A stretch of 64,000 nucleotides of DNA from Rhizobium sp. (GTDB lineage: Bacteria; Pseudomonadota; Gammaproteobacteria; Burkholderiales; Thiobacillaceae): positions 62,001 to 126,000 of the forward strand of contig JAIBEL010000073.1 of assembly GCA_019459285.1 (NCBI GenBank). Reading direction: 5' to 3'. Position numbers and translations under genes: made by a program. Below the pieces are notes generated by a model. That model ran no database searches, had not been told where the DNA came from, and saw only the letters and a list, made by a program, of their open reading frames with translations. Positions within the stretch are counted from its first letter, which is position 1; each line of letters starts with the position of its first letter. Of the stretch, positions 8,091 through 41,488 are shown one piece after another.

Positions 8091-8099
8091 CCGGGCGCC

Positions 8100-9623
8100 A
8101 TGGCCCATCCTCCGTTGCACGGTCCCACCCTGGTCCTGCTGACCCTGGGCCTGAGCCTGGGCACCTTCATGCAGGTACTGGACACGTCGATCGCCAACGT
8201 CTCGCTGCCGGCGATTTCGGGCGACCTGGCCGTGAGCCCGAACCAGGGCACCTGGGTCATCACCTCCTTCGCCGTCAGCAACGCCATTGCCCTGCCGCTG
8301 ACCGGTTGGCTGTCGCGCCGCTTCGGCGACGTCCGCCTGTTCGTGCTGTCCACCCTGCTGTTCACCCTGGCGTCCTGGCTCTGCGGCCTGGCGCCTACCC
8401 TACCCTCCCTGATCGCCGCGCGCGTCCTGCAGGGCGCGGTGGCGGGGCCGATGATTCCGCTCTCGCAGAGCCTGCTGCTGAACAATTACCCGCCGGAAAA
8501 GAAGGGGCTCGCGTTGGCACTCTGGTCGATGACCGTGATCGTCGCGCCCATTCTGGGACCGATCCTCGGCGGCTGGATCACCGACAACATCAACTGGCCG
8601 TGGATCTTCTACATCAACCTGCCGGTCGGCCTGCTGTCGGCCTTCCTGACCTGGACCATCCTGGGCAAGCGCTCCAGCGCGACCCAGGTCGTGCCCATCG
8701 ATAAGGTGGGCCTGGTGCTGCTGGTGCTGGGCGTGGGCGCGCTGCAAATCCTGCTGGACAAGGGCAACGAGCTCGACTGGTTCGAATCCGGCACCATCGC
8801 CGCCCTGGCGGTCGTCTCCGCGGTGGCACTGAGCGTACTGGTGGTCTGGGAACTGACCGACCGCCACCCGGTGGTGGACTTCCATCTGTTCGGCCAGCGC
8901 AACTTCCTGGTCGGCACGGTCATCCTGAGCGTCGGCTACCTGGTGTTCTTCGGCAACGTGGTGATCCTGCCGCTATGGCTGCAGACCAACATGGGCTACA
9001 CCGCGACCTGGGCGGGCATGGCCGCCGCGCCCATCGGCATCCTGCCGGTGTTCCTGTCCGCGTTCGTAGGCAAGTACATGCACAAGGTCGACCTGCGCAT
9101 CTGGGCCACCTTCAGCTTCATGGTGTTCGCCGCGGTGTCGTTCTGGAACAGCAATTTCAACTCCGACGTCACTTTCCAGCACATCGTGATTCCGCGCCTG
9201 CTGATGGGCTTCGGGGTGGCGAGCTTCTTCGTGCCGCTGACCGCCCTTACGCTGGCGGATATTCCGCCCCACATGATGCCCAGCGCCACCGGCCTGTCGA
9301 ACTTTTCACGCATCCTGGCCGGCAGTTTCGGCACCTCGCTCAGCATCACCCTGTGGGACCGTCGCGCCGAGTTCCACCACAGCATCCTGACCTCGCATGT
9401 CTCGGCTTTCGACCCGTCGGCGGCCGACGCCCTCGGCAGTCTGGGCAATCCGGCCACGGACCCGGCCATGCTGGAGCGGATCATCAATCAGCAGGCAGTG
9501 CTGCTGGCAACCAACGACATCTTCTGGCTGTCAGGCTGCTTCTTCGTCGCCCTGATGCTGATGGTCTGGCTGGCCCGGCCGCCCAAACGGGGGGTCGCAC
9601 CGGTCGCCAGCGGGGCCCATTGA
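8100..9623 (+). CDS. emrB: EmrB-type MFS drug:H+ antiporter (DHA2 family)
   Basis: A 507-residue, roughly 14-helix major facilitator. It shows the DHA2 motif LDTSIANVSLPAI in helix 1, WVITSFAVSNAIALP, motif A as GWLSRRFGDVR, and motif C as GPILGGWI. It exports hydrophobic toxic compounds in exchange for protons through the EmrA- and NodT-like partners. No good ribosome site precedes ATG 8100, so translational coupling to emrA is likely. It is the last gene of the operon. Confidence 0.92.
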   Translation: MAHPPLHGPTLVLLTLGLSLGTFMQVLDTSIANVSLPAISGDLAVSPNQGTWVITSFAVSNAIALPLTGWLSRRFGDVRLFVLSTLLFTLASWLCGLAPTLPSLIAARVLQGAVAGPMIPLSQSLLLNNYPPEKKGLALALWSMTVIVAPILGPILGGWITDNINWPWIFYINLPVGLLSAFLTWTILGKRSSATQVVPIDKVGLVLLVLGVGALQILLDKGNELDWFESGTIAALAVVSAVALSVLVVWELTDRHPVVDFHLFGQRNFLVGTVILSVGYLVFFGNVVILPLWLQTNMGYTATWAGMAAAPIGILPVFLSAFVGKYMHKVDLRIWATFSFMVFAAVSFWNSNFNSDVTFQHIVIPRLLMGFGVASFFVPLTALTLADIPPHMMPSATGLSNFSRILAGSFGTSLSITLWDRRAEFHHSILTSHVSAFDPSAADALGSLGNPATDPAMLERIINQQAVLLATNDIFWLSGCFFVALMLMVWLARPPKRGVAPVASGAH

Positions 9624-13888: not shown

Positions 13889-14261
13889 CCCGCTTACCGT
13901 CCGAAACCCGGGCCAGCACCAATATTGCCGCTGCCCGCGGCGTAGCCCTCTGACCCGTGAGTCTCATTATCGCCAGACATGCGGAGGCGAGGTAGCTTGC
14001 CGCCCATCCACGTTGTAAATCGTACGGCCCTCTCCGCTCAGCCGATCTCTACTGGAACCGAATCAACCCTGGTCTACTCTCCGTAGTAAGGAGGGAGATG
14101 CAATTTTCTGCTCGATTGCGCCCCCTGCTGGTGCGAGTGACAGAAATACGCCCCTTGCCTGTGCGGCCTCCGGACGATGCACTGGTTTTGATCGGCCTGC
14201 ATTTCTCCCGTCGCACTATTTGTGCTCAACCCGGTCGAACTTTTGGCCGCTAAAAAGGACA
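13889..14261. other. Intergenic region upstream of prkA
   Basis: A gap of about 370 bp with no convincing gene. It is the upstream control region of the sigma-54-type promoter at 14262 and is the place to expect enhancer sites for an activator. An imperfect dyad of TGCGCC and GGTGCG around 14117-14135 is only loosely like an NtrC site. Confidence 0.4.
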
Positions 14262-14277
14262 TGGCACGATCATTGCG
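14262..14277 (+). promoter_or_regulatory. Sigma-54 (-24/-12) promoter of the prkA operon
   Basis: TGGCACG, four bases, then TTGC: an almost exact match to the RpoN consensus, with the invariant GG (14263-14264) and GC (14275-14276) at the required 10-bp spacing. Transcription would begin about 12 bp further, leaving a leader of roughly 35 nt before ATG 14324. The E. coli homologue yeaGH is likewise reported as RpoN/NtrC dependent. Confidence 0.8.
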
Positions 14278-14323
14278 ACAACAGGGTCAGGCCTAACATC
14301 GATTCACCGGACAGGAGGACTCC

Positions 14324-16243
14324 ATGAGCTTGTTCAACCAGTACATCGAACGCTACCGCAGAGAAGAAGAGGAATTCACCCTCGAGGAATTCCTGGATAT
14401 CTGCAAGCAGGACCGGATGGCTTACGCGAGCTCTGCCGAACGCATGCTGGCGGCGATCGGCGAGCCGGAACTGGTGGATACCCGGAAGGATCCCCGATTG
14501 TCCCGCCTGTTCTCCAACAAGGTCATCAAGGTCTACCCGGCCTTCAAGGATTTTTACGGCATGGAAGAGACGATCGAGCAGATCGTGTCCTATTTCCGGC
14601 ATGCGGCACAAGGCCTGGAAGAGAAAAAACAGATTCTCTATCTGCTGGGCCCGGTGGGCGGCGGCAAATCCTCGTTGGCGGAGAAGCTCAAGCATCTGAT
14701 GGAGAAGGCGCCCTTCTACGCCATCAAGGGCTCGCCGGTGAACGACTCGCCGCTGTCACTGTTCTCGGCCGACGAGGACGGTGACATTCTGTTGCAGGAA
14801 TATGGCATTGCACTCCGCTATCTCGGCAAGGTCCTGTCGCCCTGGGCGGTGAAGCGGCTGCACGAGTACAACGGCGACATCACCAAGTTCCGCGTGGTCA
14901 AGCGCTGGCCTTCGGTGCTGGGCCAGGTCGGCATTTCCAAGACCGAGCCGGGCGACGAGAACAACCAGGACATCTCCTCGCTGGTCGGCAAGGTGGATAT
15001 CCGCAAGCTGGAAAAATATTCGCAGGACGACCCCGATGCCTACAGCTATTCGGGCGGACTGTCCCTGTCCAACCAGGGCCTGATGGAATTCGTCGAGATG
15101 TTCAAGGCGCCGATCAAGGTGCTGCATCCGCTCCTGACCGCCACACAGGAAGGCAACTACAAAGGCACCGAGGGCTTCGGCGCGATTCCCTTCGACGGCG
15201 TGGTGCTGGCGCACAGCAACGAGTCGGAGTGGACCACCTTCCGCAACAACAAGAACAACGAAGCTTTCCTCGACCGCATCTACATCGTCAAGGTGCCCTA
15301 CTGCCTGCGCGTGTCCGAGGAGGTGAAGATCTACGAGAAACTCCTGCAGCACAGTTCGCTGTCGGAGTCGCCCTGCGCGCCAGGCACGCTGGAAATGCTG
15401 GCGCAGTTCTCGGTCCTGACCCGTCTGAAAGAGCCGGAAAATTCCAGTATCTATTCCAAGATGCGCGTCTACGACGGCGAGAACCTCAAGGACACCGACC
15501 CCAAGGCCAAGAGCTACCAGGAATACCGCGACTTCGCCGGCGTCGACGAAGGCATGACGGGCATCTCGACCCGTTTCGCCTTCAAGATCCTGTCGCGCGT
15601 GTTCAACTTCGACCACAGCGAAATCGCCGCCAACCCGGTGCATCTGCTCTACGTGCTGGAACAGCAGATCGAGCAGGAACAGCTGCCGCCCGAGGTGGAG
15701 CAGCGCTACATCGCCTATCTGAAGGAGTACCTGTCGCCGCATTACGCCGAATACATCGAGAAGGAATTGCAGACCGCCTACCTCGAGTCCTATTCGGAAT
15801 ATGGACAGAACATCTTCGACCGCTACGTGACCTACGCCGACATGTGGATCCAGGACCAGGAATTCCGCGACCCCGACACCGGCGAGGTTCTCGACCGCGC
15901 CCAGCTCAATACCGAGCTGGAGAAGATCGAGAAGCCCGCCGGCATCGCCAACCCGAAGGACTTCCGCCATGAGGTAGTCAACTTCGTGCTGCGCGCCCGC
16001 GCCCAGAACCACGGCAAGAACCCGGCCTGGACCAGCTATGAGAAGCTGCGCGTGGTGATCGAGAAGCGCATGTTCTCCAGCACCGAGGACCTGCTGCCGG
16101 TGATCTCCTTCAACGCCAAGGCGTCCAGCGACGAACAGAAGAAGCACCAGGACTTCGTCCAGCGCATGGTCGACAAGGGCTACACCGACAAGCAGGTGCG
16201 CCTGCTGGCCGAGTGGTATCTGCGCGCGAGAAAGGCGTCCTGA
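14324..16243 (+). CDS. prkA: PrkA/YeaG family serine protein kinase (AAA+)
   Basis: A 639-residue cytoplasmic protein: an N-terminal AAA+ domain with Walker A GPVGGGKS (109-116), and the C-terminal PrkA kinase-like domain. It matches YeaG in length and throughout. In enterobacteria YeaG works with YeaH in nitrogen-starvation and stationary-phase responses; in Bacillus PrkA acts in sporulation control. A strong AGGAGG site precedes the ATG. It is first in the prkA-yeaH-spoVR operon, read from a sigma-54 promoter. Confidence 0.95.
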   Translation: MSLFNQYIERYRREEEEFTLEEFLDICKQDRMAYASSAERMLAAIGEPELVDTRKDPRLSRLFSNKVIKVYPAFKDFYGMEETIEQIVSYFRHAAQGLEEKKQILYLLGPVGGGKSSLAEKLKHLMEKAPFYAIKGSPVNDSPLSLFSADEDGDILLQEYGIALRYLGKVLSPWAVKRLHEYNGDITKFRVVKRWPSVLGQVGISKTEPGDENNQDISSLVGKVDIRKLEKYSQDDPDAYSYSGGLSLSNQGLMEFVEMFKAPIKVLHPLLTATQEGNYKGTEGFGAIPFDGVVLAHSNESEWTTFRNNKNNEAFLDRIYIVKVPYCLRVSEEVKIYEKLLQHSSLSESPCAPGTLEMLAQFSVLTRLKEPENSSIYSKMRVYDGENLKDTDPKAKSYQEYRDFAGVDEGMTGISTRFAFKILSRVFNFDHSEIAANPVHLLYVLEQQIEQEQLPPEVEQRYIAYLKEYLSPHYAEYIEKELQTAYLESYSEYGQNIFDRYVTYADMWIQDQEFRDPDTGEVLDRAQLNTELEKIEKPAGIANPKDFRHEVVNFVLRARAQNHGKNPAWTSYEKLRVVIEKRMFSSTEDLLPVISFNAKASSDEQKKHQDFVQRMVDKGYTDKQVRLLAEWYLRARKAS

Positions 16244-22254: not shown

Positions 22255-25200
22255 TTAGGCCGCTTCGACCATCCCGACCGCTTCATCCACGTCGACCGCG
22301 ACGATGCGCGACACGCCCTGTTCCTGCATGGTGACGCCGGCCAGGTGCTGCGCCATTTCCATGGTGACGCGGTTGTGGGTAATGAAGAGGAACTGGGTGT
22401 GGTCGGACATCGCCTTGACGAGGTTGCAGTAGCGCTCGGTGTTGGCGTCGTCGAGCGGTGCGTCGACCTCGTCCAGCAGACAGAACGGCGCCGGGTTGAG
22501 CTTGAACATGGCGAACACCAGCGACAGCGCGGTGAGCGTTTTCTCGCCGCCCGAGAGCAAGTGGATCGAGGCGTTTTTCTTGCCGGGCGGCTGGGCGAAC
22601 ACCTGCACGCCGGCGTCGAGTAGTTCGTCGCCGGTCAAAATCAGACGCGCCTGGCCGCCGCCGAACAGCTGCGGGAACAGTTCGCCCATGTGCTGGTTCA
22701 CGGTGTCGAAGGTTTCCTTCAGCCGCGCGCGCGATTCCTGGTCGATGCGGCGGATCGCGTCTTCCAGCGTGGTGACGGCTTCCAGTAGGTCGGCACATTG
22801 CGCGGCGAGGTATTCGGAACGCTCCTGCGCCTGGGTCAGCTCGTCCAGTGCGGCGAGGTTGACCGCACCGAGCGCGGCGATCTCGTTCTGCAGACGGTTG
22901 ATATCGGCCTGCAATTGGCTGGGCTTGGGACTATCGGCCAAGCCCGATTCGAGGCTGGCTTCATCCGCCGCTGCTTCGCGCAGTTGCAGTTCGAACTGCG
23001 ACTGCATCAGCATGGCTTCCTGGTCCTTGAGTTTCAACTGCTCGATGCTGCGGCGCAGCGGGTCGAGCCCCTGCTCGCAGGCCATCCGGGCCTCGTCGTG
23101 GCCGCGCAACTGGGCGGTCAGTCCTTCCAGTGCGTCGCGCGCGGCGGCCAGCGCGGCCTCGGTTTCAGTGCGCGTCGCCAGGGCAGCCTGCAGTTCGGCG
23201 TCGAGCGCGTCGGCCGGCAGGCGCGCCAGTTCCTCGCGCGCCTGGGTCAGGCGGGTGTCGTCATCGGCGATTTCCTGCTCGATGCGTGCCAGCGCCTCGG
23301 CAAGTTCCCGGATCTTGTTGGTGCAGGTGGTCAGCGCAAAGCCGGCTTCCTGATGCCGCCGCTCCGCTGCACGCTGCAGTTCACGCGCGTCGAACACCGC
23401 ACGGTCGGCCTGGTCGCGCTGCTGACGCGCAGCATAGAGGGCTTCGCGAGCGGCCTCGTCCTGTGCGCGGTAGTCCTTGAGGCGGACTTCCAGTGTTTCC
23501 AGTGTGGCGCGCTCGCCGGTTTGCTGGCGGGTTACTTCCTCGAGTTCCTGGGTGATCTGGGCCGCCCGGCTCTGTACGCGTTCCACCGCCTGTTGCAGGC
23601 GCAGCAGTTCCATCTGCGCGGTGTGGTGGCGGTTTTGCGTCTGGCCGGTTTGCGCGCGCAGCGCCTGGATGTCGCGCTGACGCTCCATGTAGCCCTGCTG
23701 CGCCTCGGCGTAGGCGGCTTCGAGTTGGGCGACTTCATCACGCAACCGCATCGCATCCGTCGTCAGCCGTTCGAGTTCGCGCCCGCGCGCAAGAATGCCT
23801 TCCACCGCGGTATGCGGACCGTGGAACGTGACGCTGTGGCGAGTGAAGAGATGGCCTTGCGGGGTCACGACCGTTTCCCCGGCTGCGAGACTCGTTGCAC
23901 GGGCGCGCGCAGCGTCCGCATCGTCGGCCCAGTACACGCCTGCCAGCCAGTCTGCAAGCGCCGCATGCGCGGCGGCATCGTCGCTGGCAATCTTGCTGCT
24001 GAGCATATCCGACGCGCTGGCAGTCGCCGCGCCTTGTCCGGCCCATACGGTGAGACGCGCGGGCGGTGCGTCGGTAAACCACTCGGGAGTGACATCGGCT
24101 GACACCGACTGCAGGCGTTCACGCAACACCGCCTCGACGGCCGCTTCCCAGCCAGGGGTGACACGCAGTTTTTCCCACAGGCGCGGCGCGCTATCCAGGC
24201 CGCGCTGGCGCAGCCAGGTGCCAAGCTTCTCGTCGGCCTTGAGACTTTCCTGTAGTTTTTTCAGTGCCGCGAGCTCGGCCTCGGTCTGGTGCAGCGCCTT
24301 GCGTGCGGCTTCGAGATCGCGCATGTGCTGCGCGCGTGCCGCGTCGAGTTCGGGCAATGCCGTCTCGGCATCCTTGAGCCCGGTCTGCGCCGTGGCCAAT
24401 GTCTGCGCCAGTTCCTCGAGCTCGACTTGTTTTTGCGCCAGGCCGGCGGCATCAGGGCGCGGCAACTGCGCCTGTTCCTGGGCGAGCCGGCGCTGGCGCG
24501 CATCCAGTTGCTCGAGTTGGCGCTTGGTATGGCCGAGGCTGTTTTCGTCAACCTGGCGCGACTGGTCCAGTTGCGACACCACGCGCTGCGCCTCGCCCAC
24601 GCCTTGTTGCGTAACGCGCAGCGCAGCTTCCTTCTCCGGCAGGGTGCTGTCGGTGGCCTGGCGTGCGGCGGCCTCGGCTTCCATCAACGCGGCTTCGAGA
24701 CCGGGCTGCTGCGCGTTGACCTCGTGCAGTGCATCCTGCGTGGCGGTCCGACGCGCCTGCTGCGCCTCGACGCGCGCGCCCATATCCTGCACCTGGCGGT
24801 ACAGCCGTTCGCGGGTGGCGTTCTGGTGCGCCATGGTCTGCTCGATGCGCGCCACTTCGGACTGCGCCTGGTAATACGCCGCCTGCGCGGTGTTGAGCGT
24901 GTCCTGCCCGGCGAACTGGGTCTGGCGCGCGGTTTCAAGCAGGGATTCGATGTGGCGCAGGCGCGCGGTTTCGGCTTCCAGTTTGTTCTGCGCTTCGGTG
25001 AGATCCTTGTCGATGCGCGCGCGCTGCTGCGCGGCGTCGTGCTTGCGGGCGAACCACAGGCGGTGCTGCGAGAACGTCAAATCCGCTTGAAGACTGCGGT
25101 AGTGCTGGGCGACTTCGGCCTGAGCGGCGAGTTTCTCGACCTGGGTCTTGAGTTCGCGCTGGATGTCCTCGACGCGGTTCATGTTGTCGCGCGCGTCCTT

Positions 25201-25752
25201 CAGCCGCGATTCGGTTTCCTTGCGGCGCTCCCTGTACTTGGACACGCCCGCGGCTTCTTCCAGATAGCCGCGCAGTTCCTCGGGCTTGGCCTCGATCAGG
25301 CGCGTAATCATGCCCTGCTCGATGATGGCGTAGGCGCGCGCACCGACGCCGGTGCCGAGGAACAGGTCGGCGACGTCGCGCCGCCGCACCCGCATGTTGT
25401 TGATGTAATACGTGGAGTCGCCGCTGCGGTCGAGCACACGCTTGACCGAGATCTCGGCATATTGCGACCACTGCCCGGCGGCACGGCCGAGTTCATTGTT
25501 GAACGCCAGCTCGACCGAGGCGCGCGACGCCGGCTTGCGGGTGCCGGAGCCGTTGAAGATCACATCCTGCATCGATTCGCCACGCAGGTGCTTGGCCGAC
25601 GATTCGCCGAGCACCCAGCGCACCGCGTCGATGACGTTCGACTTGCCGCAGCCGTTCGGCCCCACCACGCCGGTCAACTGGGCGGGGACGGGAATCACGG
25701 TGGGGTCGACGAAACTCTTGAAACCGGCAAGTTTGATGTGGGTTAAACGCAA
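22255..25752 (-). CDS. smc: Chromosome segregation ATPase SMC
   Basis: A 1165-residue SMC protein: N-terminal Walker [10 protein letters not shown] (residues 32-40), a long coiled coil broken by a hinge near the middle (around 500-630), and a C-terminal ABC signature LSGGEKT with Walker [16 protein letters not shown]. It loads on the chromosome with ScpAB. Long open frames on the opposite strand across it are composition artefacts. It is divergent from queF with 94 bp between the starts. Confidence 0.97.
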
Positions 25753-32662: not shown

Positions 32663-32725
32663 AAACAAAGGCCAGTAGCCTAATCCAGGCTTACCAATGG
32701 ATTCAGCCAAGCACCCAACTTTCAG

Positions 32726-32755
32726 CCCGTTCGCCCTGAGCTTGTCGAAGGGCTG
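32726..32755 (-). repeat. Dispersed repeat, copy B
   Basis: Read on the minus strand it gives CCTTCGACAAGCTCAGGGCG followed by AACGGG, the fullest form of the repeat in this window. It lies between the end of the GIY-YIG gene and the 3' end of an L,D-transpeptidase gene. Confidence 0.65.
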
Positions 32756-32768
32756 CCCGCCCCCAACC

Positions 32769-33775
<1,007 letters not shown>

Positions 33776-33791
33776 TCACAGTCCTGAATGC

Positions 33792-33821
33792 TTGAAAATC
33801 ACTGACCATGAGCAGTGTAAC
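33792..33821 (+). promoter_or_regulatory. Candidate promoter facing the cassette array
   Basis: TTGAAA (33792-33797) and TGTAAC (33816-33821) are spaced 18 bp apart and point into the array. This is where the Pc-like promoter of an integron would be useful, but the match is ordinary and could be chance. Confidence 0.3.
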
Positions 33822-33976
33822 CAATCAGGCCTGATGCTAACCAGCAGGCAAGGGGTCGTGTTACGCTTCGCGTCACATAACAAAAATTGCGGAGGACGTT
33901 TTTCCATCGAAACACCCCAAAAAAGGGAGGAGAAAAACGTGACCCGAACCAGTCCAGCGGATGCATGGCCATCTGC

Positions 33977-34007
33977 GCCTAACGCCTCGTCTGAGCACAC
34001 GTTAGGA
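33977..34007 (+). other. Degenerate or centre-deleted attC-like site at the left edge
   Basis: R''-like GCCTAAC (33977-33983) and R'-like GTTAGGA (34001-34007) are only 17 bp apart, so the central region of a normal attC is missing. The palindrome CCTAACG/CGTTAGG is perfect. GTTAGGA is the exact complement of the R'' box of cassette 1 (TCCTAAC), as expected for the start of that cassette. Confidence 0.55.
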
Positions 34008-34016
34008 GATACAACT

Positions 34017-34496
34017 ATGTATTTCACTGCTTCAAGATCTTTAAAAATCGCCTATGCCATAGTGGTTTTAACTGCGGTTGTCCCAATAGGGCTTGCCAGC
34101 TCGGGATGGGTCGCTCTCGCTGCAGGCCGTGGCGGAGCTGCAATCCCATACATTGGACCAATTTTGTTTCTTGTACTGGGCATATACCGAGTAGTAACAG
34201 TGTATCGAAACCCACAGGCATTGCACTCTTACCCCGTAAAAGGTTTCGTGAATGTGTTGCGGAAAATCGGAGTGTTCGCGCTCTATTTTGGCGCATTGGT
34301 TGGGGTATTGAATCTTGTTTCAAGGCCGCTCATGGCTGCGCTCATTACCCATAGAAGCGAGAATGGAATTGAGTTTTTCGTCGTTGGAATGTACCTGGCG
34401 ATGCTCGGCGGAATCGGTTTTCTTGGCCTTATCACCTTCGAGTTGAGTCGTTTGCTGGGCTTCGAAGAGCATTCTCGTGCCCAAACAATCTCCTAA
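34017..34496 (+). CDS. Cassette 1: membrane protein of unknown function
   Basis: A 159-residue protein with about four membrane helices. ATG 34017 lies 10 bp after the core site GTTAGGA, and the stop codon falls within the R'' box of the next attC, as is typical of cassette genes. The same frame also extends upstream to GTG 33939, which has a strong GGGAGGAG site 6-7 nt before it, so a longer product or a leader-driven translation is possible. No family is recognised. Confidence 0.75.
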   Translation: MYFTASRSLKIAYAIVVLTAVVPIGLASSGWVALAAGRGGAAIPYIGPILFLVLGIYRVVTVYRNPQALHSYPVKGFVNVLRKIGVFALYFGALVGVLNLVSRPLMAALITHRSENGIEFFVVGMYLAMLGGIGFLGLITFELSRLLGFEEHSRAQTIS

Positions 34497-34568
34497 CACG
34501 GCGCTCAACCTCGCTCCCTCCGGTCGCTGGACGGCGCTAAAGCGCCGCCGGTTAGCCCTACGCCAGGT
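34491..34568 (+). other. attC site 1 (78 bp)
   Basis: R'' TCCTAAC, spacer ACGGC, L'' GCTCAACC (34503-34510), a central segment with an inner GGCGCT-AA-AGCGCC palindrome, L' GGTTAGC (34550-34556), spacer CCTAC, then GCCAGGT in the R' position. L'' is one base longer than L', which leaves the single extrahelical base needed for strand choice by IntI. The R' box has CC where GTTRRRY needs TT, so this junction may no longer recombine. Confidence 0.85.
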
Positions 34569-34570
34569 AT

Positions 34571-34999
34571 ATGAACACAACGACATTTCAGATTCCGCCG
34601 CGAGAGATAAAAGTCGCGCTAATGCTTCTTTGGATAGCGCTTTTTGCTGGCGCAGCCAGCTTAATTCCAATGTTCGTGAACAACTGGGCCGTAATTTCAG
34701 ACCAACCGGCCGATTGGTGGATACAAATCCTTTGGGCTTACCCTTTAAATATCATGCTCCTCCTCGCGCTTGCGCAGGGCTATGGCTGGATCAGATGGTT
34801 GTTAGCGATCGCTTTGACGCTTATGTTTTTTTCCTTGTTAGTCAAATTCAAAGAATGGTCTCAACTTCACGGACAGCTTGGAATCTTCCTATACGTTGAG
34901 CCAATCGTCTTTATTTCCCGATGTATTGCTATCGTGTTGCTTTTCAGACCTGCGTCAAACATTTGGTATGCTCGTCGTCGCTCAGCTACCCCGGTCTAA
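34571..34999 (+). CDS. Cassette 2: membrane protein of unknown function
   Basis: A 142-residue protein with four membrane helices. ATG 34571 is 3 nt after attC 1; its TAA lies inside R'' (GTCTAAC) of attC 2. No ribosome site of note and no promoter are visible, so expression probably depends on upstream transcription. No known family is recognised. Confidence 0.75.
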   Translation: MNTTTFQIPPREIKVALMLLWIALFAGAASLIPMFVNNWAVISDQPADWWIQILWAYPLNIMLLLALAQGYGWIRWLLAIALTLMFFSLLVKFKEWSQLHGQLGIFLYVEPIVFISRCIAIVLLFRPASNIWYARRRSATPV

Positions 35000-35071
35000 C
35001 ATGGCGCTCAACCTCGCTCCCTTCGGTCGCTGGACGGCGCTAAAGCGCCGCCGGTTAGCTCTACGTTGGGC
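34994..35071 (+). other. attC site 2 (78 bp)
   Basis: R'' GTCTAAC, spacer ATGGC, L'' GCTCAACC (35006-35013), central segment, L' GGTTAGC (35053-35059), spacer TCTAC, R' GTTGGGC (35065-35071). All boxes fit the consensus. It is nearly identical to attC 1 over its body, differing at a few positions, which is how cassettes gathered by one integrase lineage look. Confidence 0.9.
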
Positions 35072-35083
35072 GGATAGCTAACC

Positions 35084-35530
35084 GTGGATAAGAACGCATA
35101 TCTCATCGAACTATCGGAAGGTGGCCAAACATCTTTTGGGCGGATCGATCTCCGAGAACAAAGCGAAGAACAACAGGTGTTCTCTGCAATCTGGGAACTT
35201 GAAAGCCAAGTCAACAATGGTGGCTTTGCTCAGTACTTCAGCAGTGCTGACGGACACACCGCACACTTCGCTGTGGCAGCCCTCAAACGTATCGGCGCTA
35301 GCAGGTGTGCCGACATTGTGGCTCGTGCGCTCCGTACCGCCACATCAGGTGCTCTTCCGGATGAACAAACGACTCGGGTACAAATCATCAATGATCTCAA
35401 TCAACAAGCACAGGAGGCCCTAGAGTCCTTAGATCAGGAGTTCTTCTCCTACCCTGACAATCTCACAGAGTTGCTGTTCGAGTTTGTGCGTTCCAAACCC
35501 CAGTTCTTCGGTGCAATTGGTGACGAGTAA
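35084..35530 (+). CDS. Cassette 3: DUF4375 domain protein
   Basis: A 148-residue protein with the DUF4375 pattern: WELESQVNNGGFAQYF, then a helical region. The start is GTG 35084, 12 bp after R' GTTGGGC. The stop lies 3 nt before R'' GCCCAAC of its own attC, and those two boxes are exact complements, which proves the cassette limits. DUF4375 proteins have no known activity; a role in immunity or toxin systems has been suggested for relatives. Confidence 0.85.
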   Translation: MDKNAYLIELSEGGQTSFGRIDLREQSEEQQVFSAIWELESQVNNGGFAQYFSSADGHTAHFAVAALKRIGASRCADIVARALRTATSGALPDEQTTRVQIINDLNQQAQEALESLDQEFFSYPDNLTELLFEFVRSKPQFFGAIGDE

Positions 35531-35533
35531 ACC

Positions 35534-35656
35534 GCCCAACAATACGGTCAAGCGGAACTGGCCGTCAGCCGCTTCGTTCTGCTCTTTTGGAGTGTTCATA
35601 GTTACGCTCCATCGCGGGCAACCTTTACTGCCAGCCCCTTACCTTCAACGTTAAGC
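35534..35656 (+). other. attC site 3 (123 bp)
   Basis: R'' GCCCAAC, spacer AATAC, L'' GGTCAAGC (35546-35553), a long central region containing AAGCGG/CCGCTT, L' CCTTACC (35637-35643; one mismatch plus the extra base), spacer TTCAAC, R' GTTAAGC (35650-35656). It is within the known attC length range and clearly of different origin from sites 1 and 2. Confidence 0.75.
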
Positions 35657-35704
35657 CGCACACTCGCCCCACGACCGACATCAATCTCCAAAGGAAACAG
35701 CACC

Positions 35705-36046
35705 ATGACCAAGTACCTAATCTCCTTTCCCAGCGCTGCGATGGTCGTGCCCGAAGGCGAGTGGGAGGCGGTGGGTCGCGACGCGCACGCCGTGATCGAT
35801 AAAGCGAAAGCCGCCGGCGTCTACGTCTTCGGCGGCGGCATCGACGAAGGCGTGCCACCAGTTCTCGTCGCAGCAGATGGAGCAGTGGCCGAGGGTGGTT
35901 ACCCATGGGCGCCCCCGCTTGACGGCGGCTTCACTGTACTCGAACTACCTTCACGCGAGGAGGCTGTCGCGTGGGCCGCGCGCATCGCGAAGGCCTGTCG
36001 TTGTGACCAAGAGCTACGCGTCTTCGGGTTCGATCCTCAGTCCTGA
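35705..36046 (+). CDS. Cassette 4: YciI-like protein
   Basis: A 113-residue ferredoxin-like YciI/DGPF domain protein (KYLISFPSAAM at the start, FTVLELPSREEAVAWAARIA at the end). AAAGGA lies before ATG 35705. YciI-like proteins are common integron cargo; some act on chlorinated or metabolic side products, but no activity can be inferred here. Core site R' is GTTAAGC at 35650; its R'' partner is GCCTAAC at 36077. Confidence 0.8.
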   Translation: MTKYLISFPSAAMVVPEGEWEAVGRDAHAVIDKAKAAGVYVFGGGIDEGVPPVLVAADGAVAEGGYPWAPPLDGGFTVLELPSREEAVAWAARIAKACRCDQELRVFGFDPQS

Positions 36047-36076
36047 GGGCGGCATAGAAATGGCGCAGAAAGTGCG

Positions 36077-36088
36077 GCCTAACAATTC
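36077..36088 (+). other. Half attC site (R'' box) broken by IS debris
   Basis: GCCTAAC followed by AATTC, a classic R''-spacer start, 30 bp after the YciI stop. The rest of the site is replaced by insertion-sequence remnants until an R'-like GTTAGAC at 36707. Confidence 0.6.
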
Positions 36089-36345
36089 ATATGTGGACGC
36101 CCCCAATAGCAAGAAACTAGTTCGATAGTTGTGGCTGTTCGGAATTGCGTGCAGTCGTATATCCGGCATCTTGAGTGGGTTTTGTGTGACCCGTGCCGAC
36201 ATGGAATCTGCTCACGGCGCGCCAATCGGTACAAGCGGCAGCTTGGGTGCCGGAAGAGTTACCGGCGCCAGTCCGTGATGAGGCAATCGTTTGAGCCATG
36301 ATGGGCGATCAGTCTCTTGGCAAACGCAGGTGGAGATTTCCTTGC

Positions 36346-36596
36346 TCAAACCGCCACGGCGTTCGCCATGCGATTAGTCTTGCGGTTCGACTCCCGGACA
36401 CTCAGTTTGCCGTAAGGCTCATGCTCCCTCAGCACCGCAAAGCAGATGCGCGCCAGCTTGTTGGCCAGCGCGCAAGGTCACTGACAATGCTTTCATGGAA
36501 ACCTTCTTTCACTCGATGAAGGCGGAGACGATTCACGGCCACATCTTTACTCAGGATGGACTTGGCCAGATCAATTCCAATGACGATAATGCTCAT
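36346..36596 (-). pseudogene. IS110-family transposase remnant interrupted by an IS3-family fragment
   Basis: On the minus strand, 36596-36554 encodes an IS110 N terminus (MSIIVIGIDLAKS) and about 36478-36346 encodes an IS110 C terminus (ALANKLARICFAVL, ending at TGA 36346). Between them, read on the plus strand at about 36480-36553, is an IS3-type OrfB piece (TDNAFMETFFHSMKAETIHG). Most of both genes is gone. The surrounding 36047-36715 has no intact gene. Confidence 0.7.
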
Positions 36597-36715
36597 GACT
36601 TCCCCTCCAGAGGTGTTGATGAGATCGAGAAATTCGATCATGGCACTTTCGATGTCGAATGCGGAAACTTCGCCACAGCCACGCGACGCGGAAGTCCCTT
36701 TCATTCGTTAGACCC

Positions 36716-37096
36716 ATGAAAGACTCCGACCTTTCCATTGACGAAGTCACTCGAATTCTCGCTGCACGGGAACCGATCTTTCACCGTCCGGAGTTCGGCA
36801 CGTCTCGTATGGATTTTGAAGCAATGACCGCGCCGGAGTTTTGGGAAGTCGGCGCTTCCGGTCGCAAATACTCCAAGGAATCTGTCCTTGAAACACTGGA
36901 GGCCAGACATTCCCAACCGGTTACTGAGTCTTACTTGGTAACGGATTTTTTGTGCCAGGAGCTTTCTCCCAACCTCTACTTGGCGACATATCAACTTGAC
37001 CAAGAAGGCCGGCTAAGCCGGCGTTCGACAATCTGGCGTCGTAATGGGGATAACTGGCGAGTTGTCTATCATCAAGGGACGCCAATTGCCGCATGA
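36716..37096 (+). CDS. Cassette 5: DUF4440/NTF2-like protein
   Basis: A 126-residue cone-fold (SnoaL/DUF4440) protein: the N-terminal helix reads SIDEVTRILAAREPIFHRPE and the C-terminal strands read RRSTIWRRNGDNWRVVYHQGTP. It begins 3 bp after core site GTTAGAC (36707-36713). The function is unknown; members of this fold are small-molecule binding or isomerase-like proteins. Confidence 0.8.
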   Translation: MKDSDLSIDEVTRILAAREPIFHRPEFGTSRMDFEAMTAPEFWEVGASGRKYSKESVLETLEARHSQPVTESYLVTDFLCQELSPNLYLATYQLDQEGRLSRRSTIWRRNGDNWRVVYHQGTPIAA

Positions 37097-37161
37097 CAAT
37101 CCGATATGGCCGGCTGCAAACCGCCACATGACTCAGCAGCGGCTGAGTTCGGACGTTAGGC
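37091..37161 (+). other. Degenerate attC site
   Basis: It ends in a perfect R' box GTTAGGC (37155-37161) and holds a strong ACTCAGC/GCTGAGT stem. The R'' side (GCATGAC then AATCC, overlapping the stop codon) is only loosely similar to consensus. Confidence 0.45.
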
Positions 37162-37185
37162 AGCATACAAACTCAATGAAACCCA

Positions 37186-37752
37186 ATGAACACAAAGAAT
37201 CTTCTCGTCCTGCCGGATAATTTGCCAGTCCCTGAAGATGATGGTGCATGCGTCCATTTGGAAGGGACGAATATGCCTGCCATCGCTCTAGCAAGCACTT
37301 CAGGATCAAAAGTAAATCCTGGGCTCGAAGATGGAATGCTGGCTGTCTACTTCTACCCCATGACAGGAAGGCCAGACGCGCCGCCCATGGTTGGCTGGAA
37401 CGAGATTCCTGGAGCACGGGGATGCACACCTCAATCCTGTTCTTTTCGTGACCATCACTCTGATTTGCTAGGTTTAGGAGCCAAGGTATACGGTGTGAGT
37501 TTGCAATCTTCGGAAGACCAGAAAGAAGCTGTTCAACGCCTCCATTTGCCCTTTGAGTTATTGAGCGACAGCAAGTTTGAATTGGCAAGCGCATTGAGGC
37601 TTCCCACGTTCGAATATAACGCCTTGCGTCTCATCAAGAGACTCACGCTCATTATCGAAAATGGCGTAATACGCAAAGTTTTCTATCCGGTTTTTCCACC
37701 AAACGAAAACGCGGCCAATGTCGTCGCTTGGCTACAGCAAAACAAGGCCTAG
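37186..37752 (+). CDS. Cassette 6: peroxiredoxin-like (AhpC/TSA) protein
   Basis: A 188-residue thioredoxin-fold peroxidase. It keeps a YFYPMTGRPD segment, GCTPQSCSFRD (the CTxxSCxFRD pattern of the Prx family) and KVYGVSLQSSEDQ. The peroxidatic Cys is likely one of the pair in that motif. ATG 37186 is 24 bp after core GTTAGGC; its stop lies within GCCTAGC, a one-base variant of the complementary R'' box. It probably reduces peroxides. Confidence 0.82.
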   Translation: MNTKNLLVLPDNLPVPEDDGACVHLEGTNMPAIALASTSGSKVNPGLEDGMLAVYFYPMTGRPDAPPMVGWNEIPGARGCTPQSCSFRDHHSDLLGLGAKVYGVSLQSSEDQKEAVQRLHLPFELLSDSKFELASALRLPTFEYNALRLIKRLTLIIENGVIRKVFYPVFPPNENAANVVAWLQQNKA

Positions 37753-37839
37753 CATTGGCCAGCCAGGATGCCAAAACAGTCGAGCCTCGCCGAGTGTTCC
37801 GTCGTCCGTTACCTTTGATGTTACGAATGGAGAATGGAT

Positions 37840-38319
37840 ATGGTTTCCAAGAACACGATCTGTCTTTGGTATGACGGCACCGCCCTGGACGCCGCGAAGT
37901 TCTATGCCGAGACCTTCCCGGACAGCGCAGTGGGAACGGTCTGTCGTGCGCCCGGCGACTATCCCGCGGGCGAACTGGGCGACATTTTGACGGTGGAGTT
38001 CACCGTGATGGGCATCTCTTGTCTCGGCCTGAATGGCGGTCCGGCGTTCAAACACAACGAGGCTTTTTCGTTCCAGGTTGCGACTGACGACCAGGCCGAA
38101 ACCGACCGCTTGTGGCGTGCGATCGTGGACAACGGCGGCCAGGAGAGCGCCTGCGGCTGGTGCAAGGACAAGTGGGGGCTGTCTTGGCAGATCACGCCGC
38201 GCGCGCTCACTGCCGCAATCGCCGATCCCGATCGCGCCGCAGCCAAGCGCGCGTTCGAGGCGATGATGCAGATGAGCAAGATCGATATCGCGGCAATCGA
38301 AGCGGCCCGGCGCGGCTGA
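37840..38319 (+). CDS. VOC family protein (PhnB/3-demethylubiquinone-methyltransferase-like domain)
   Basis: About 159 residues: WYDGTALDAAKFYAETFPDS at the start, SCLGLNGGPAFKHNEAFSF in the middle and CGWCKDKWGLSWQITPRAL at the end are all hallmarks of the PhnB-like VOC subfamily. GGAGA precedes ATG 37840 by 6 nt, so this start is better than ATG 37834. GC is higher than in cassettes 1-3 and no clear attC flanks it; it may be an eroded cassette or a separate acquisition. Confidence 0.85.
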   Translation: MVSKNTICLWYDGTALDAAKFYAETFPDSAVGTVCRAPGDYPAGELGDILTVEFTVMGISCLGLNGGPAFKHNEAFSFQVATDDQAETDRLWRAIVDNGGQESACGWCKDKWGLSWQITPRALTAAIADPDRAAAKRAFEAMMQMSKIDIAAIEAARRG

Positions 38320-38489
38320 CGCTCAAGCACGCGCGTTTACGAGGGCTGCGAACTGCCGTGATCGAAAGCCGACCAAATGTCAGCGCCTAAGCTACGTAAA
38401 CAGGGGCGAACCGGGCGGCACAATTGAAGCGAGACCATGGCATGCGCTAAATTGACGGTGTTTGCATCACAGCTCATCTGGAGAAGCTG

Positions 38490-38888
38490 ATGTCCGATTT
38501 ATCTCCCCTCCCCGATTTCTTGGTTCTTTCACGCGGAAAGTGGGACGCTGACAAGTCCCCGGAAGAGATCCAGCACGCCATCGACGCCTTCTACGTCTGG
38601 CACGATCGTCTTGTACAAGAAGGCAGGCTCAAGCCGGGCCAGAGGCTTGCCACGCAAGCCAAGCTGGTTTCGCGCTCGGGTGTGACGGATGGCCCCTATG
38701 CAGAGGCAAAGGAGGTCATTGGGGGCTACTGGTTTTTCCGTGCTGCCGACCTGCAGGAAGCCGTCGCTCTGGCATCCCAGAATCCTTGCCTGGCCTGCGG
38801 ACTTACATTCGAGATTCGACCTGTCGAAAGCGAGCGGGCAAGCGCCTTCAAGTTGACGAACGAGACCCCCGGCCCTGTAACCAGGTAG
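38490..38888 (+). CDS. YciI-like (YCII/DGPF) domain protein
   Basis: A 132-residue protein with the DGPYAEAKEVIGGYWFFRAADLQEAVALA core of the DGPF subfamily (motif DGPYAE). ATG 38490 follows GGAGAA. It often occurs beside PhnB-like proteins, as here. No activity is assigned. The 170 bp before it hold no gene. Confidence 0.82.
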   Translation: MSDLSPLPDFLVLSRGKWDADKSPEEIQHAIDAFYVWHDRLVQEGRLKPGQRLATQAKLVSRSGVTDGPYAEAKEVIGGYWFFRAADLQEAVALASQNPCLACGLTFEIRPVESERASAFKLTNETPGPVTR

Positions 38889-38935
38889 CGTGTGGGCATC
38901 ATCTAGGCGCATGAAATCATATTCAGGACACAAGA

Positions 38936-39509
38936 ATGAAAACGCAATATTACGCAGCTACAAGTCTCGATGGCTTTATTGCTACAGAGAATGACTCACT
39001 TGACTGGCTGTTTCCACTTGGCGACCTGAATAACTCCAGCTATCCAGCGTTCATTGCTGATGTAGGTGTATTGGCAATGGGATCAGCAACTTACGAATGG
39101 ATGGTGCGCAACGCTGAAAAGCTTGCCTCTGAGACCGGCTCAGTATGAGCCGTACACGCAGCCAGCCTGGATATTCTCCAGTCGCAGGCTTCCAATCATC
39201 GAAGGGGCAAACATCAGATTCGTCAATGGAGATGTACGTGACGTCCACGCTGAAATGCAAGCTGCTGCAGGCACCAAAAACATCTGGATAGTTGGAGGCG
39301 GGGATCTCGCGGGCCAGTTCTACGACGCTGGCTTACTGGACGAACTGATCATCCAGGTTGGTTCGGTCACCCTAGGCAAGGGCAAGCCACTTTTCCCTCG
39401 CAGACTGCTCAGCCCAGTTCTGCACCTGATGTCAGTTCATCAGATGAGTGCTGGCATGGCTGAGTTGCGCTATGAGATACACAAAGGCGATCCGGGTGGA
39501 GCTGTTTAA
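38936..39509 (+). pseudogene. DHFR/RibD-like reductase gene with a frameshift
   Basis: The first frame (38936-39148) gives [35 protein letters not shown], the N-terminal half of the DHFR/RibD-C family. The second half continues in another frame from about 39140 ([39 protein letters not shown]) to the stop at 39509. One base gained or lost near 39120-39145 restores a normal protein of about 190 residues. It is either a true frameshift or a sequence error. Its end overlaps an attC half site. Confidence 0.8.
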
Positions 39510-39523
39510 CGATACATTCAAGC
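39504..39523 (+). other. attC half site (R'' and L'' boxes)
   Basis: GTTTAAC (RYYYAAC, overlapping the DHFR-like stop), spacer GATAC, then ATTCAAGC. These three parts match the left half of a normal attC. The right half is not clear: CTTAGGT at about 39545 could be a mutated R' box. Confidence 0.5.
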
Positions 39524-39566
39524 GCGACAGGCTAAAGCACACCCCTTAGGTCACCCATACCCTGAC

Positions 39567-39933
39567 ATGGACCACTCCATTTTCAGCCGTATCCGCAACT
39601 ACAGCGCTGTTGATGATCGGCTGGCATCTCCGGGCAACCTTCTGTGGACCCGTCGCGCGAGATCGTAGAGGCTGGGTTTACCCTTGCTGCCAATCTGGCC
39701 TGCATGACGATCCGCGTTACTCGCCGCCTGATGGGGCTGGCGTTGTTGGATCGCTTGGTATGCGCTATGTGCATATTCCTGTCCAGCTCTCGGCGCCTAC
39801 CCACACCGATCTCCTCGAATTCTTCGAGGTCATGGCCAGACACGAAGGCGAGAAGACCTGGGTTCACTACGCGGCAAACATGCGGGTCTCTGCTTTCCTG
39901 GGGCTGTACTTAATTCAAACCTTGGGGCGCTAG
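39567..39933 (+). pseudogene. Tyrosine-phosphatase-like protein, frameshifted and active-site mutated
   Basis: Three frames together give a DSP/beta-lactamase-hydrolase-like phosphatase: NYSAVDDRLASPGN (39600s), REIVEAGFTLAANLA (39655-39700), and GMRYVHIPVQLSAPTHTDLLEF onward (39755-39933). The signature CxxNxRxSA appears as YAANMRVSAF, with the catalytic cysteine changed to tyrosine. At least two frameshifts and this substitution mean it is inactive. Confidence 0.7.
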
Positions 39934-39985
39934 GGCTAGGCCGCCTAGAATACCCTCGATACCAACCGCAACAGGAGTGGACGGC

Positions 39986-41488
39986 ATGTCCGATACCACG
40001 CGTTATCCCATCATCTACGTCCGCGGCTACGCGATGACGAAGTCGGAAATCACCGAAACCACCTCGACGCCTTACATGGGCCTCGAGCTTGGCTCGACCA
40101 AGGCGCGCCAGGCCTGGGATGGCGCGGTGCGCAAGGTCTTCTTCGAGTCGCCTATCGTGCGATTGCTGAAAGAAGGCTACAGCGACATCTACCGGGACGG
40201 CCTGCAGATCGAATCCGGACCGATCCCGCTGCAGAGCATCATCATCCATCGCTACTACGATGTGGCCGATCCGGATTTCGGGTCAGGCAAGATACCCACG
40301 ATCATCGATGCCGCGAAAGGACTGAGCGACCTGATCCTGCGCGTGCGCGACCAGGTCTGCCTCGACGGCCGCATGAAGCCCGAGGACTTCAGGGTGTATC
40401 TGGTGGCGCACTCGATGGGCGGCCTGGTCTGCCGCTGCTTCCTCCAGAACGGCGCGGCCGGCAGCGACACGGCACGCAAGCTCGTCGACAAGGTGTTCAC
40501 GTTCGCCACGCCACACAACGGCATCGAGATGGCCGGGATGAACGTTCCGGATTTCTTCGGCCTGTGGGACATGAACAACTTCAACCGCGACGAGATGAGA
40601 AAGTATCTCGACATCCAGGACAAGAACATCGGGGTCAATTCGCTCGACGGAAAATTCGACCCGAGCCGATTCTTCTGCCTGGTCGGCACGAACAGCAAGG
40701 ACTACGACGTGGCACGCGGCACCTCCCGGCTGCTTGCCGGCGAACTGAGCGATGGGTTGGTGCGCATCGAGAACGCTTATGTTTCGGGTGCGCCGCGTGC
40801 CCACGTCCACCGCAGTCACAGCGGTCCGTACGGCATCGTGAATTCTGAGGAAGGCTTCCAGAATCTCACCCGCTTCCTGTTCGGCGACGTCAGCGTCAAT
40901 GGCCTGCTGGAAATCGAAAACCTGCCGCTTCCACCGGCGAACCGGCTGCAGAAGCTGTTTGGAAAAAAGGTCGGCTACTACTTCGAGGTGGCGGTCGCCA
41001 CCCGAGGGGCGCTCGATTTCGATCTCACCCGCCGCACGGTGGCCAACAACAGCGCCATATTGCGTTCGCGCGGCGAGCTCTTCGAGGACGACGGCACGCT
41101 GAAGGCGGATGCGCGCCATCCGCATCTCTTCTCCACTTTCCTCGACCTGTCGAAGCGGCCGTCTGACAGCCCGGAAATGATGTTCACGATCCAGCTCGCC
41201 GTATCGATGATCACCTATACCGGCGAGGATACTTCGCGTGACGACCACTATGTGCCCGGCGAATACCTGTTCCGCGACACCATCGTGATCAGCGCCATTC
41301 CGCCGGCAGACCCGGCCGCATCCTGGCAGGTCGGCTTCGTCCTCGCCGACAGCGGATGGTCGGGCGCGAAGACGACACCGGCGAACGGAAAGACCGACGA
41401 GCAGGGCCAGCCCTATGTCGCGATCCCGCTGGAGAACGAGAAAGACTTCAAGGCAAGCCTGCGGCTATACGGCTCGCATTGGTTCTAA
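39986..41488 (+). CDS. Alpha/beta-hydrolase, lipase/esterase-like
   Basis: A 500-residue protein. The N-terminal half is a lipase-like hydrolase: the first strand reads YPIIYVRGY and the nucleophile elbow is AHSMGG, with FATPHNGIEM after it. The C-terminal part is a beta-rich domain of unknown role (VGYYFEVAVATRG onward). There is no signal peptide. ATG 39986 follows ACAGGAG; the GTG 9 nt earlier is too close to that site. The substrate is unknown. Confidence 0.85.
   Translation: MSDTTRYPIIYVRGYAMTKSEITETTSTPYMGLELGSTKARQAWDGAVRKVFFESPIVRLLKEGYSDIYRDGLQIESGPIPLQSIIIHRYYDVADPDFGSGKIPTIIDAAKGLSDLILRVRDQVCLDGRMKPEDFRVYLVAHSMGGLVCRCFLQNGAAGSDTARKLVDKVFTFATPHNGIEMAGMNVPDFFGLWDMNNFNRDEMRKYLDIQDKNIGVNSLDGKFDPSRFFCLVGTNSKDYDVARGTSRLLAGELSDGLVRIENAYVSGAPRAHVHRSHSGPYGIVNSEEGFQNLTRFLFGDVSVNGLLEIENLPLPPANRLQKLFGKKVGYYFEVAVATRGALDFDLTRRTVANNSAILRSRGELFEDDGTLKADARHPHLFSTFLDLSKRPSDSPEMMFTIQLAVSMITYTGEDTSRDDHYVPGEYLFRDTIVISAIPPADPAASWQVGFVLADSGWSGAKTTPANGKTDEQGQPYVAIPLENEKDFKASLRLYGSHWF

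What the first reader, a model, noticed from the sequence alone, without database searches (positions are those of the whole stretch)
33977..39523. Integron cassette array without a visible integrase
Between tadA and a lipase-like gene lies a run of short plus-strand ORFs, most of whose stops fall in or next to RYYYAAC boxes and most of whose starts follow GTTRRRY-type core sites. Two sites show complete attC geometry. The array sits in the middle of ordinary housekeeping genes, and its cargo has mostly unknown function. Family knowledge: this describes a CALIN or a distal part of a chromosomal integron. No intI is in the window.
Basis: partly seen in the sequence, partly recalled or inferred. 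Interest (0 to 1): 0.85.

Follow-up and report, generated by a model that had tools for sequence, protein, structure and literature searches.

The report
Integron cassette array missing its integrase
A sulfur bacterium keeps a short row of captured gene cassettes at the chromosomal spot where its relatives carry the cassette-capturing enzyme, but the enzyme gene is gone; such leftover arrays are already known from other bacteria.

Summary
The array is real, but shorter than claimed. A covariance model trained on 19 attC sites from relatives finds three plus-strand sites at 34491-35656 (E 4e-14, 4.5e-11, 1.8e-5); the best hit outside the array in the 64 kb has E 0.037. Degenerate, split or truncated sites extend the array to about 33862-37824. 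The genes at 37840-39509 have no attC hit and are probably flank.

The genus is, by inference, Thiobacillus. In 21 of 42 tadA-bearing genus genomes intI lies beside tadA with the array on its other side; in 17 of the 21 its stop overlaps the tadA start. The window keeps tadA and the array but no intI. None passes the cut-off in the assembly, although 14 attC-like sites do occur there.

A close relative with the same tadA-lipase locus differs by a cassette block whose ends fall within two bases of attC crossover points.

Best reading: a chromosomal integron that lost its integrase, i.e. a CALIN. Precedents exist (Xanthomonas, Treponema). Less ordinary: in relatives the intI genes at this address fall into about five divergent lineages.

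The parts
33260..33775 (-). tadA (tRNA adenosine deaminase), the anchor gene; in 21 of 42 tadA-bearing genus genomes intI lies next to it
33776..33861 (-). tadA leader with a TACACT-like element (about 33814-33822); by eye similar to leaders of G060, G068, G008, G021, G022, G063, G014, but only G060 is supported by BLAST of the upstream DNA
33862..34000 (+). tail of a cassette; 81% identical to DNA about 330 bp upstream of the intI start in G012. intI and attI are missing between tadA and this point
33977..34007 (+). attC0 remnant: R'' GCCTAAC and R' GTTAGGA kept, middle deleted relative to G060
   Evidence: not an R1 hit
34017..34496 (+). cassette 1 ORF, 159 aa, no Pfam match; 96% aa identity to G060, dN/dS 0.18
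34491..34568 (+). attC1, 26.2 bits, degenerate R' (GCCAGGT, 34562-34568); the G060 match ends at 34561, next to the crossover point
34571..34999 (+). cassette 2 ORF, 142 aa, no Pfam match
34994..35071 (+). attC2, 55.8 bits, full R''/L''/L'/R' geometry
35084..35530 (+). cassette 3 ORF (GTG start), 148 aa, DMP19 family
35534..35656 (+). attC3, 45.4 bits, 123 bp
35705..36046 (+). cassette 4 ORF, 113 aa, weak YCII similarity (17.9 bits, below the Pfam cut-off)
36077..36713 (+). attC4 apparently split in two: R'' GCCTAAC 36077-36083 and R' GTTAGAC 36707-36713, with transposon-like remnants between
   Evidence: sequence, translations read by eye; Pfam does not confirm the remnants
36716..37096 (+). 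cassette 5 ORF, 126 aa, DUF4440
37091..37161 (+). attC5, weak (10.2 bits, E 0.83), canonical R' GTTAGGC (37155-37161); the G060 match resumes at 37154, next to the crossover point
37186..37752 (+). cassette 6 ORF, 188 aa, AhpC/TSA-Redoxin; 95% aa identity to G060, dN/dS 0.19
37747..37824 (+). possible attC6, very degenerate; no R1 hit here, the corresponding G060 site scores 13.2 bits (E 0.24)
   Evidence: position mapped from the alignment
37840..39509 (+). PhnB-like (3-dmu-9_3-mt), YCII and RibD_C genes, the last in two overlapping ORFs in different frames; probably flank, not cassettes
39977..41488 (+). lipase-like alpha/beta hydrolase gene marking the far side of the locus

Best explanation
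This is the head of a sedentary chromosomal integron at the tadA address used by its genus (Thiobacillus, inferred), whose integrase gene and attI have been lost. Six cassettes between decaying attC sites remain. When intI was present it would have recombined the folded bottom strand of attC sites with attI (known mechanism, inferred here), inserting cassettes beside tadA. Whole-cassette differences from G060 show that cassette-wise change took place in this lineage's history. Without an integrase the array is presumably frozen (inferred): attC sites decay (truncated attC0, R' change in attC1, split attC4), while the two cassette genes that could be compared remain under purifying selection.
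For: attC model hits in the window with a low background. attC1's best matches are 94-97% identical to sites in intI-bearing arrays of G010, G023, G024, G042 and G048; attC2 is up to 100% identical (G010). intI lies beside tadA in 21 of 42 tadA-bearing genus genomes. Window 33862-34000 matches DNA upstream of intI in G012. No IntI over cut-off in the assembly, reported as 100% complete. G060 keeps the same tadA-lipase locus, also without intI there; it shares cassettes 1 and 6 but has other DNA between them, the matches breaking at 34561 and 37154, within two bases of the R' crossovers of attC1 and attC5. In G016 a 12-residue match to the IntI C-terminus (11 of 12 identical, E 0.056) lies just upstream of tadA next to an attC, which reads as a trace of the same process in another lineage. 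dN/dS 0.18-0.19 for two cassette genes.
Against: No intI remnant was found in the 3 kb searched beside tadA, so loss is inferred from relatives. The tadA leader looks like the intI-free type, so intI was probably not fused to tadA in this lineage; the order may have been tadA, reductase gene, intI, array as in G068, or the tadA end may have been replaced by recombination. G060 and G079 each carry one intI of a different type elsewhere, which could have acted on such arrays in trans. The assembly is a draft of 74 contigs. ssDNA folding of four of five window sites is hardly better or no better than shuffles (47, 32, 88 and 101 of 200 shuffles fold at least as well; 2 of 200 for 37091-37161); an intact relative's site gave 2 of 200. 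attC1 scores just below the best control hit.
Confidence: 0.87

Rival explanations
1. The array was never beside an intI. Cassettes were inserted next to tadA in trans by an IntI coded elsewhere, at secondary sites.
For: The tadA leader here looks intI-free (by eye). The two nearest relatives, G060 and G079, each carry an intI of another type elsewhere, and single attC-like sites are scattered over several contigs here.
Against: The address is the one where half the tadA-bearing genus genomes carry intI, and DNA matching the region upstream of intI in G012 is retained. Off-site insertion would have to hit this spot by chance.
Confidence: 0.08
2. An integrase exists in this strain but is missing from the draft assembly, so the array is still served by an active integrase.
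For: 74 contigs. In G079, G015 and G012 the tadA side and the lipase side lie on different contigs, so such loci assemble badly.
Against: The window contig is 222,542 bp and runs unbroken from tadA through the array to the lipase gene, so the usual slot is present and empty. Only an intI elsewhere could be missing. Completeness is reported as 100%.
Confidence: 0.1
3. A chance run of short ORFs with motif-like boxes.
For: R''/R' boxes are short and occur by chance; several of the sites score weakly or not at all.
Against: E-values of 4e-14 and 4.5e-11 with a model not trained on this genome; near-identity to relatives' attC; one hit in 1.34 Mb of control DNA.
Confidence: 0.01

Closest known systems
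[quoted passage not shown] wording seen in the listing of PMC7923331)
   Same: Three model-detected attC sites within 1.2 kb, cassette ORFs, no intI beside them and none over cut-off in the assembly.
   Different: Its origin can be read: relatives show intI at the same address. The official attC_4 model was not run here.
Xanthomonas chromosomal integron at ilvD with repeated intI loss (PMC12444791; abstract and section 11 read)
   Same: Fixed chromosomal address, lineage-specific loss or truncation of intI, surviving cassette arrays.
   Different: Anchor is tadA, host is Thiobacillus (inferred). There intI is reported as vertically inherited with rare exceptions; here the intI tree disagrees with a species marker.
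Treponema chromosomal integron gain and loss (PMC3607928; abstract read)
   Same: Gain by a clade followed by loss of a chromosomal integron.
   Different: The abstract speaks of loss of the integron system in one branch; here cassettes survive without intI.

Membership tests
CALIN / integron cassette array | At least two attC sites in one orientation within a few kb | tested here: met
   34491-34568, 34994-35071, 35534-35656, all +
CALIN / integron cassette array | R''-L''...L'-R' geometry with an extrahelical base in L'' | tested here: met
   Script hits at 34994-35071 and 35534-35656, both best paired with a bulged base in L''. 34491-34568 fails because its R' is degenerate
CALIN / integron cassette array | No integron integrase nearby | tested here: met
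   None over the TIGR02249 cut-off in G000; no intI-like match in 3 kb beside tadA
CALIN / integron cassette array | Cassette-wise gain or loss between close relatives | tested here: met
   G060 against window, matches break within two bases of the R' crossovers; one pair of genomes compared
Complete chromosomal integron | intI gene with adjacent attI | tested here: not met
   attI itself was not modelled
Functional attC sites | Bottom strand folds into a stable hairpin | tested here: inconclusive
   Of five window sites one folds clearly better than shuffles; an intact relative's site does too
Functional attC sites | Recombined by an IntI | not testable with these tools
   needs an excision or insertion assay
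CALIN by IntegronFinder | Hits with the published attC_4 covariance model | not tested

The most novel reading that the evidence does not exclude
In Thiobacillus the 5' end of tadA is a fixed integron home where the integrase itself is exchangeable. About five deeply divergent IntI lineages occupy the same slot, mostly with intI's stop overlapping tadA's start, in a pattern that disagrees with a species marker. The address would outlive its integrases, and an intI-less array such as this one would be a vacancy between tenants that a new intI could re-occupy.
Probability: 0.4. Interest if true: 0.6.

Novelty: new member of a known kind. Interest (0 to 1): 0.36.

Why it matters
Whether CALINs arise by integrase loss or by off-site insertion is, as I recall it, not settled. 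Because tadA marks the address, the genus offers several states at one place (intI with array; a 12-residue intI stub with array; array alone; no array found), so the order of loss, the decay of attC sites and the fate of stranded cassette genes can be measured. The apparent integrase turnover at one address is the less expected part.

Tried and rejected
Rejected: the array reaching 39523 (no attC hit beyond about 37824; genes shared with the lipase-side flank of G015 and, in part, G079). Rejected: that the window's intI was fused directly to tadA, because its leader looks intI-free (by eye). Rejected: G000:C34 as the place of a lost second intI; at 98026 it carries G060's flank without the 1.4 kb intI unit, and no attC hit lies in the fetched stretch around it, so it looks like an empty site. 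Led nowhere: searching plasmids with the proteins of cassettes 1 and 3 (no match); Pfam on the transposon-like remnant (0 families for one reading, 13.9 bits below cut-off for the other), so calling it IS110/IS3-like is recall by eye only. Fold energies do not separate most window sites from shuffles. IS1111-attC elements target attC sites (recalled; the term was seen only in a search listing); I could not show that this remnant is one. The 1165-aa ORF at 22255-25752, used as species marker, turned out to be smc.
Full report
WHAT IS THERE. Between tadA (33260-33775, -) and a lipase-like gene (39977-41488, +) lies a run of plus-strand ORFs. To test the attC claim without circularity I found sites by geometry in arrays of relatives, aligned 19 of them (10 from G023, 6 from G042, 2 from G010, 1 from G012) and built covariance model R1 with the R and L arms as pairs. 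No site from this genome was used. R1 finds 34994-35071 (55.8 bits, E 4.2e-14), 35534-35656 (45.4 bits, E 4.5e-11) and 34491-34568 (26.2 bits, E 1.8e-5), all on +, and weakly 37091-37161 (10.2 bits, E 0.83). Eight hits are listed at E up to 10; the best outside the array is 14.8 bits (E 0.037). As a control, 74 tadA-flanking loci from other genera (1.34 Mb) gave one hit at E up to 1, 26.9 bits, about 9.5 kb from that locus's tadA. Rfam at its gathering thresholds reports only a tRNA in the window.

ANATOMY. In order: a cassette tail (33862-34000) ending in an attC remnant (33977-34007) whose middle is missing relative to G060; cassette 1 (159 aa, no Pfam match), attC1 with degenerate R'; cassette 2 (142 aa, no Pfam match), attC2; cassette 3 (DMP19), attC3; cassette 4 (YCII-like below cut-off), an attC apparently split by about 620 bp that read by eye like transposon remnants (Pfam finds nothing over cut-off); cassette 5 (DUF4440), weak attC5; cassette 6 (redoxin), very weak attC6 (no hit here; G060 counterpart 13.2 bits). 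The following PhnB-like, YCII and RibD_C genes (37840-39509) have no attC hit. They lie together with the lipase side in G015, and from 38421 on in G079; in G060 they are present, but about 3.1 kb of other DNA separates them from the lipase gene.

THE ADDRESS. tadA was found in 42 of 56 genus genomes. intI lies next to tadA on the same strand in 21 of these 42 and 4 kb away in one (G068). It is not beside tadA in 19, as far as the fetched stretches reach (G071, G008 and G050 offer only 0.6-2.0 kb there). The tadA locus of G013 was not fetched. In 17 of the 21, intI's stop codon overlaps tadA's start. Of the other four, G041 has one base between them, G012 and G061 have 0.7-0.9 kb inserted, and G007 could not be measured because its tadA match is in two pieces. 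Where attC sites are found in these genomes they lie on the other side of intI, oriented like the window's array. Seven of the 19 genomes without an adjacent intI (G000, G060, G079, G014, G051, G008, G016), and G068, have attC hits on the expected strand in the fetched stretch (E up to 0.05, the G068 hit nearest tadA only 19.7 bits). In 12 of the 19 none was found. In five genomes of other families of the order, no tadA match was found in the fetched DNA around intI (up to 1.5 kb each side).

THE MISSING INTEGRASE. In this genome no frame reaches the integron-integrase cut-off (best 83.6 bits against 265); 38 of 56 genus genomes have one over it. The window contig is unbroken from tadA to the lipase gene, so the slot is present and empty. 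Window 33862-34000 is 81% identical to DNA about 330 bp upstream of the intI start in G012. In G016 a stretch matching 11 of 12 IntI C-terminal residues (E 0.056) lies about 85 bp upstream of tadA beside an attC. G063 (E 9e-6) and G022 (E 0.03) show short IntI-like fragments about 2.5 kb from tadA. No such remnant was found here. The tadA leader in the window resembles by eye the leaders of several genomes without intI beside tadA, but in BLAST of the upstream DNA only G060 was found; the G068 match is mostly coding. In G068 the order is tadA, other genes, an aldo/keto-reductase-like gene, intI, array, so the lost piece may have been larger than intI and attI.

CASSETTE DYNAMICS. G060 has the same tadA-lipase locus, also without intI there. 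It shares 33997-34561 (96%) and 37154-39908 (92%) but has about 2.5 kb of other DNA, including further attC sites (34.3 and 17.5 bits), in place of 34562-37154. Both breaks lie within two bases of an R' crossover. dN/dS between the two genomes is 0.18 for cassette 1 and 0.19 for cassette 6; tadA, PhnB, YCII and the lipase gene give 0.07-0.17. dS is lower in the two cassettes (0.10-0.13) than in those four genes (0.19-0.27), which may mean that cassettes were exchanged after divergence.

WHOLE GENOME. R1 gives 14 sites at E below 1e-3, on contigs C38 (3), C34 (4), C72 (2), C27 (2), C59, C55 and C7 (the tool scored 150 of 4919 candidates, so this is a lower bound). The genome thus carries attC-like sites in several places and no recognised IntI. 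G060 and G079 each have one intI, of a type about 52% identical to that of G023, elsewhere in the genome.

PHYLOGENY. A tree of the smc gene (1165-aa ORF, Pfam SMC_N; 30 of the 46 genomes with a match) joins G000, G060 and G079 with full support. None of the three has intI beside tadA. In the next larger group of 12 rows, G015, G012, G073, G066, G041, G010 and G023 have it, G014 does not, and G004 was not scored. The tadA tree (40 genomes, 462 columns) puts G015 with G000, G060 and G079, against the smc tree, so the locus has probably recombined between species. The IntI tree (36 rows) places the tadA-adjacent integrases in about five lineages; rows from other families of the order fall among them, and G012 and G015, sisters in the smc tree, carry different ones.

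FOLDING. ssDNA folding does not help: for four of five window sites 32-101 of 200 shuffles fold at least as well (2 of 200 for 37091-37161), against 2 of 200 for an intact relative's site. This fits decay, but also means that function of the window's sites is not shown.

LITERATURE. Integrase loss with surviving cassettes is documented in Xanthomonas (PMC12444791, abstract and section 11 read), loss of the system in a branch of Treponema (PMC3607928, abstract read), and frequent intI inactivation in general (PMC2426708 and PMC3108266, passages). In the passages of those last two papers, T. denitrificans appears as an outgroup (XerC/XerD) and in lists of taxon abbreviations. Searches for integron with Thiobacillus and attC, with tadA and attC, with Hydrogenophilales, and for T. 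denitrificans with integron integrase listed no paper whose title or abstract start describes this address; only open-licence papers are covered, and the full texts were not read for it.

VERDICT. A real CALIN: most likely the head of a chromosomal integron that lost its integrase, in a genus where the address is recognisable. A new member of a known kind. The apparent turnover of integrase lineages at one address deserves its own study. On checking, confidence in the best explanation was lowered from 0.88 to 0.87, because leader similarity rests on the eye and the G016 stub has only E 0.056.

Noticed in passing
G010, G023, G012, G015 and others: L145, L146, L159, L158 and further tadA loci: IntI proteins at the single tadA address fall into about five divergent lineages, with rows from other families of the order among them. 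G012 and G015, sisters in the smc tree, carry different ones, while the intI-tadA stop/start overlap is kept across lineages.
   Followed up: partly
L191 (G060), L192 (G079), L193 (G015): A different intI (about 52% identical to the tadA-type of G023) sits in a roughly 1.4 kb unit shared at 88-95% DNA identity, with no shared flank in the stretches compared; G000:C34:98026 carries G060's flank without it.
   Followed up: partly
L172 (G016), 8087-8122: A 12-residue match to the IntI C-terminus (E 0.056) lies upstream of tadA beside an attC.
   Followed up: yes
window 36090-36700: Fragments that read by eye like transposases (IS3-like on +, IS110-like on -) lie between what look like the two halves of an attC; Pfam does not confirm.
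   Followed up: partly
L159 (G012) 14195-14873 and L168 (G061) 1008-1878: Other genes, by eye toxin-antitoxin-like, sit between intI and tadA, separating an otherwise overlapping pair.
   Followed up: no
window 38936-39509: A RibD_C / dihydrofolate-reductase-like gene is split over two overlapping ORFs in different frames; plasmids of Aulosira laxa NIES-50 and Nostoc carry 83% identical DNA.
   Followed up: no
window 32723-32761: A stretch of about 27-36 bases recurs at 91-100% identity in L152, L154 and L163, perhaps a small dispersed repeat.
   Followed up: no
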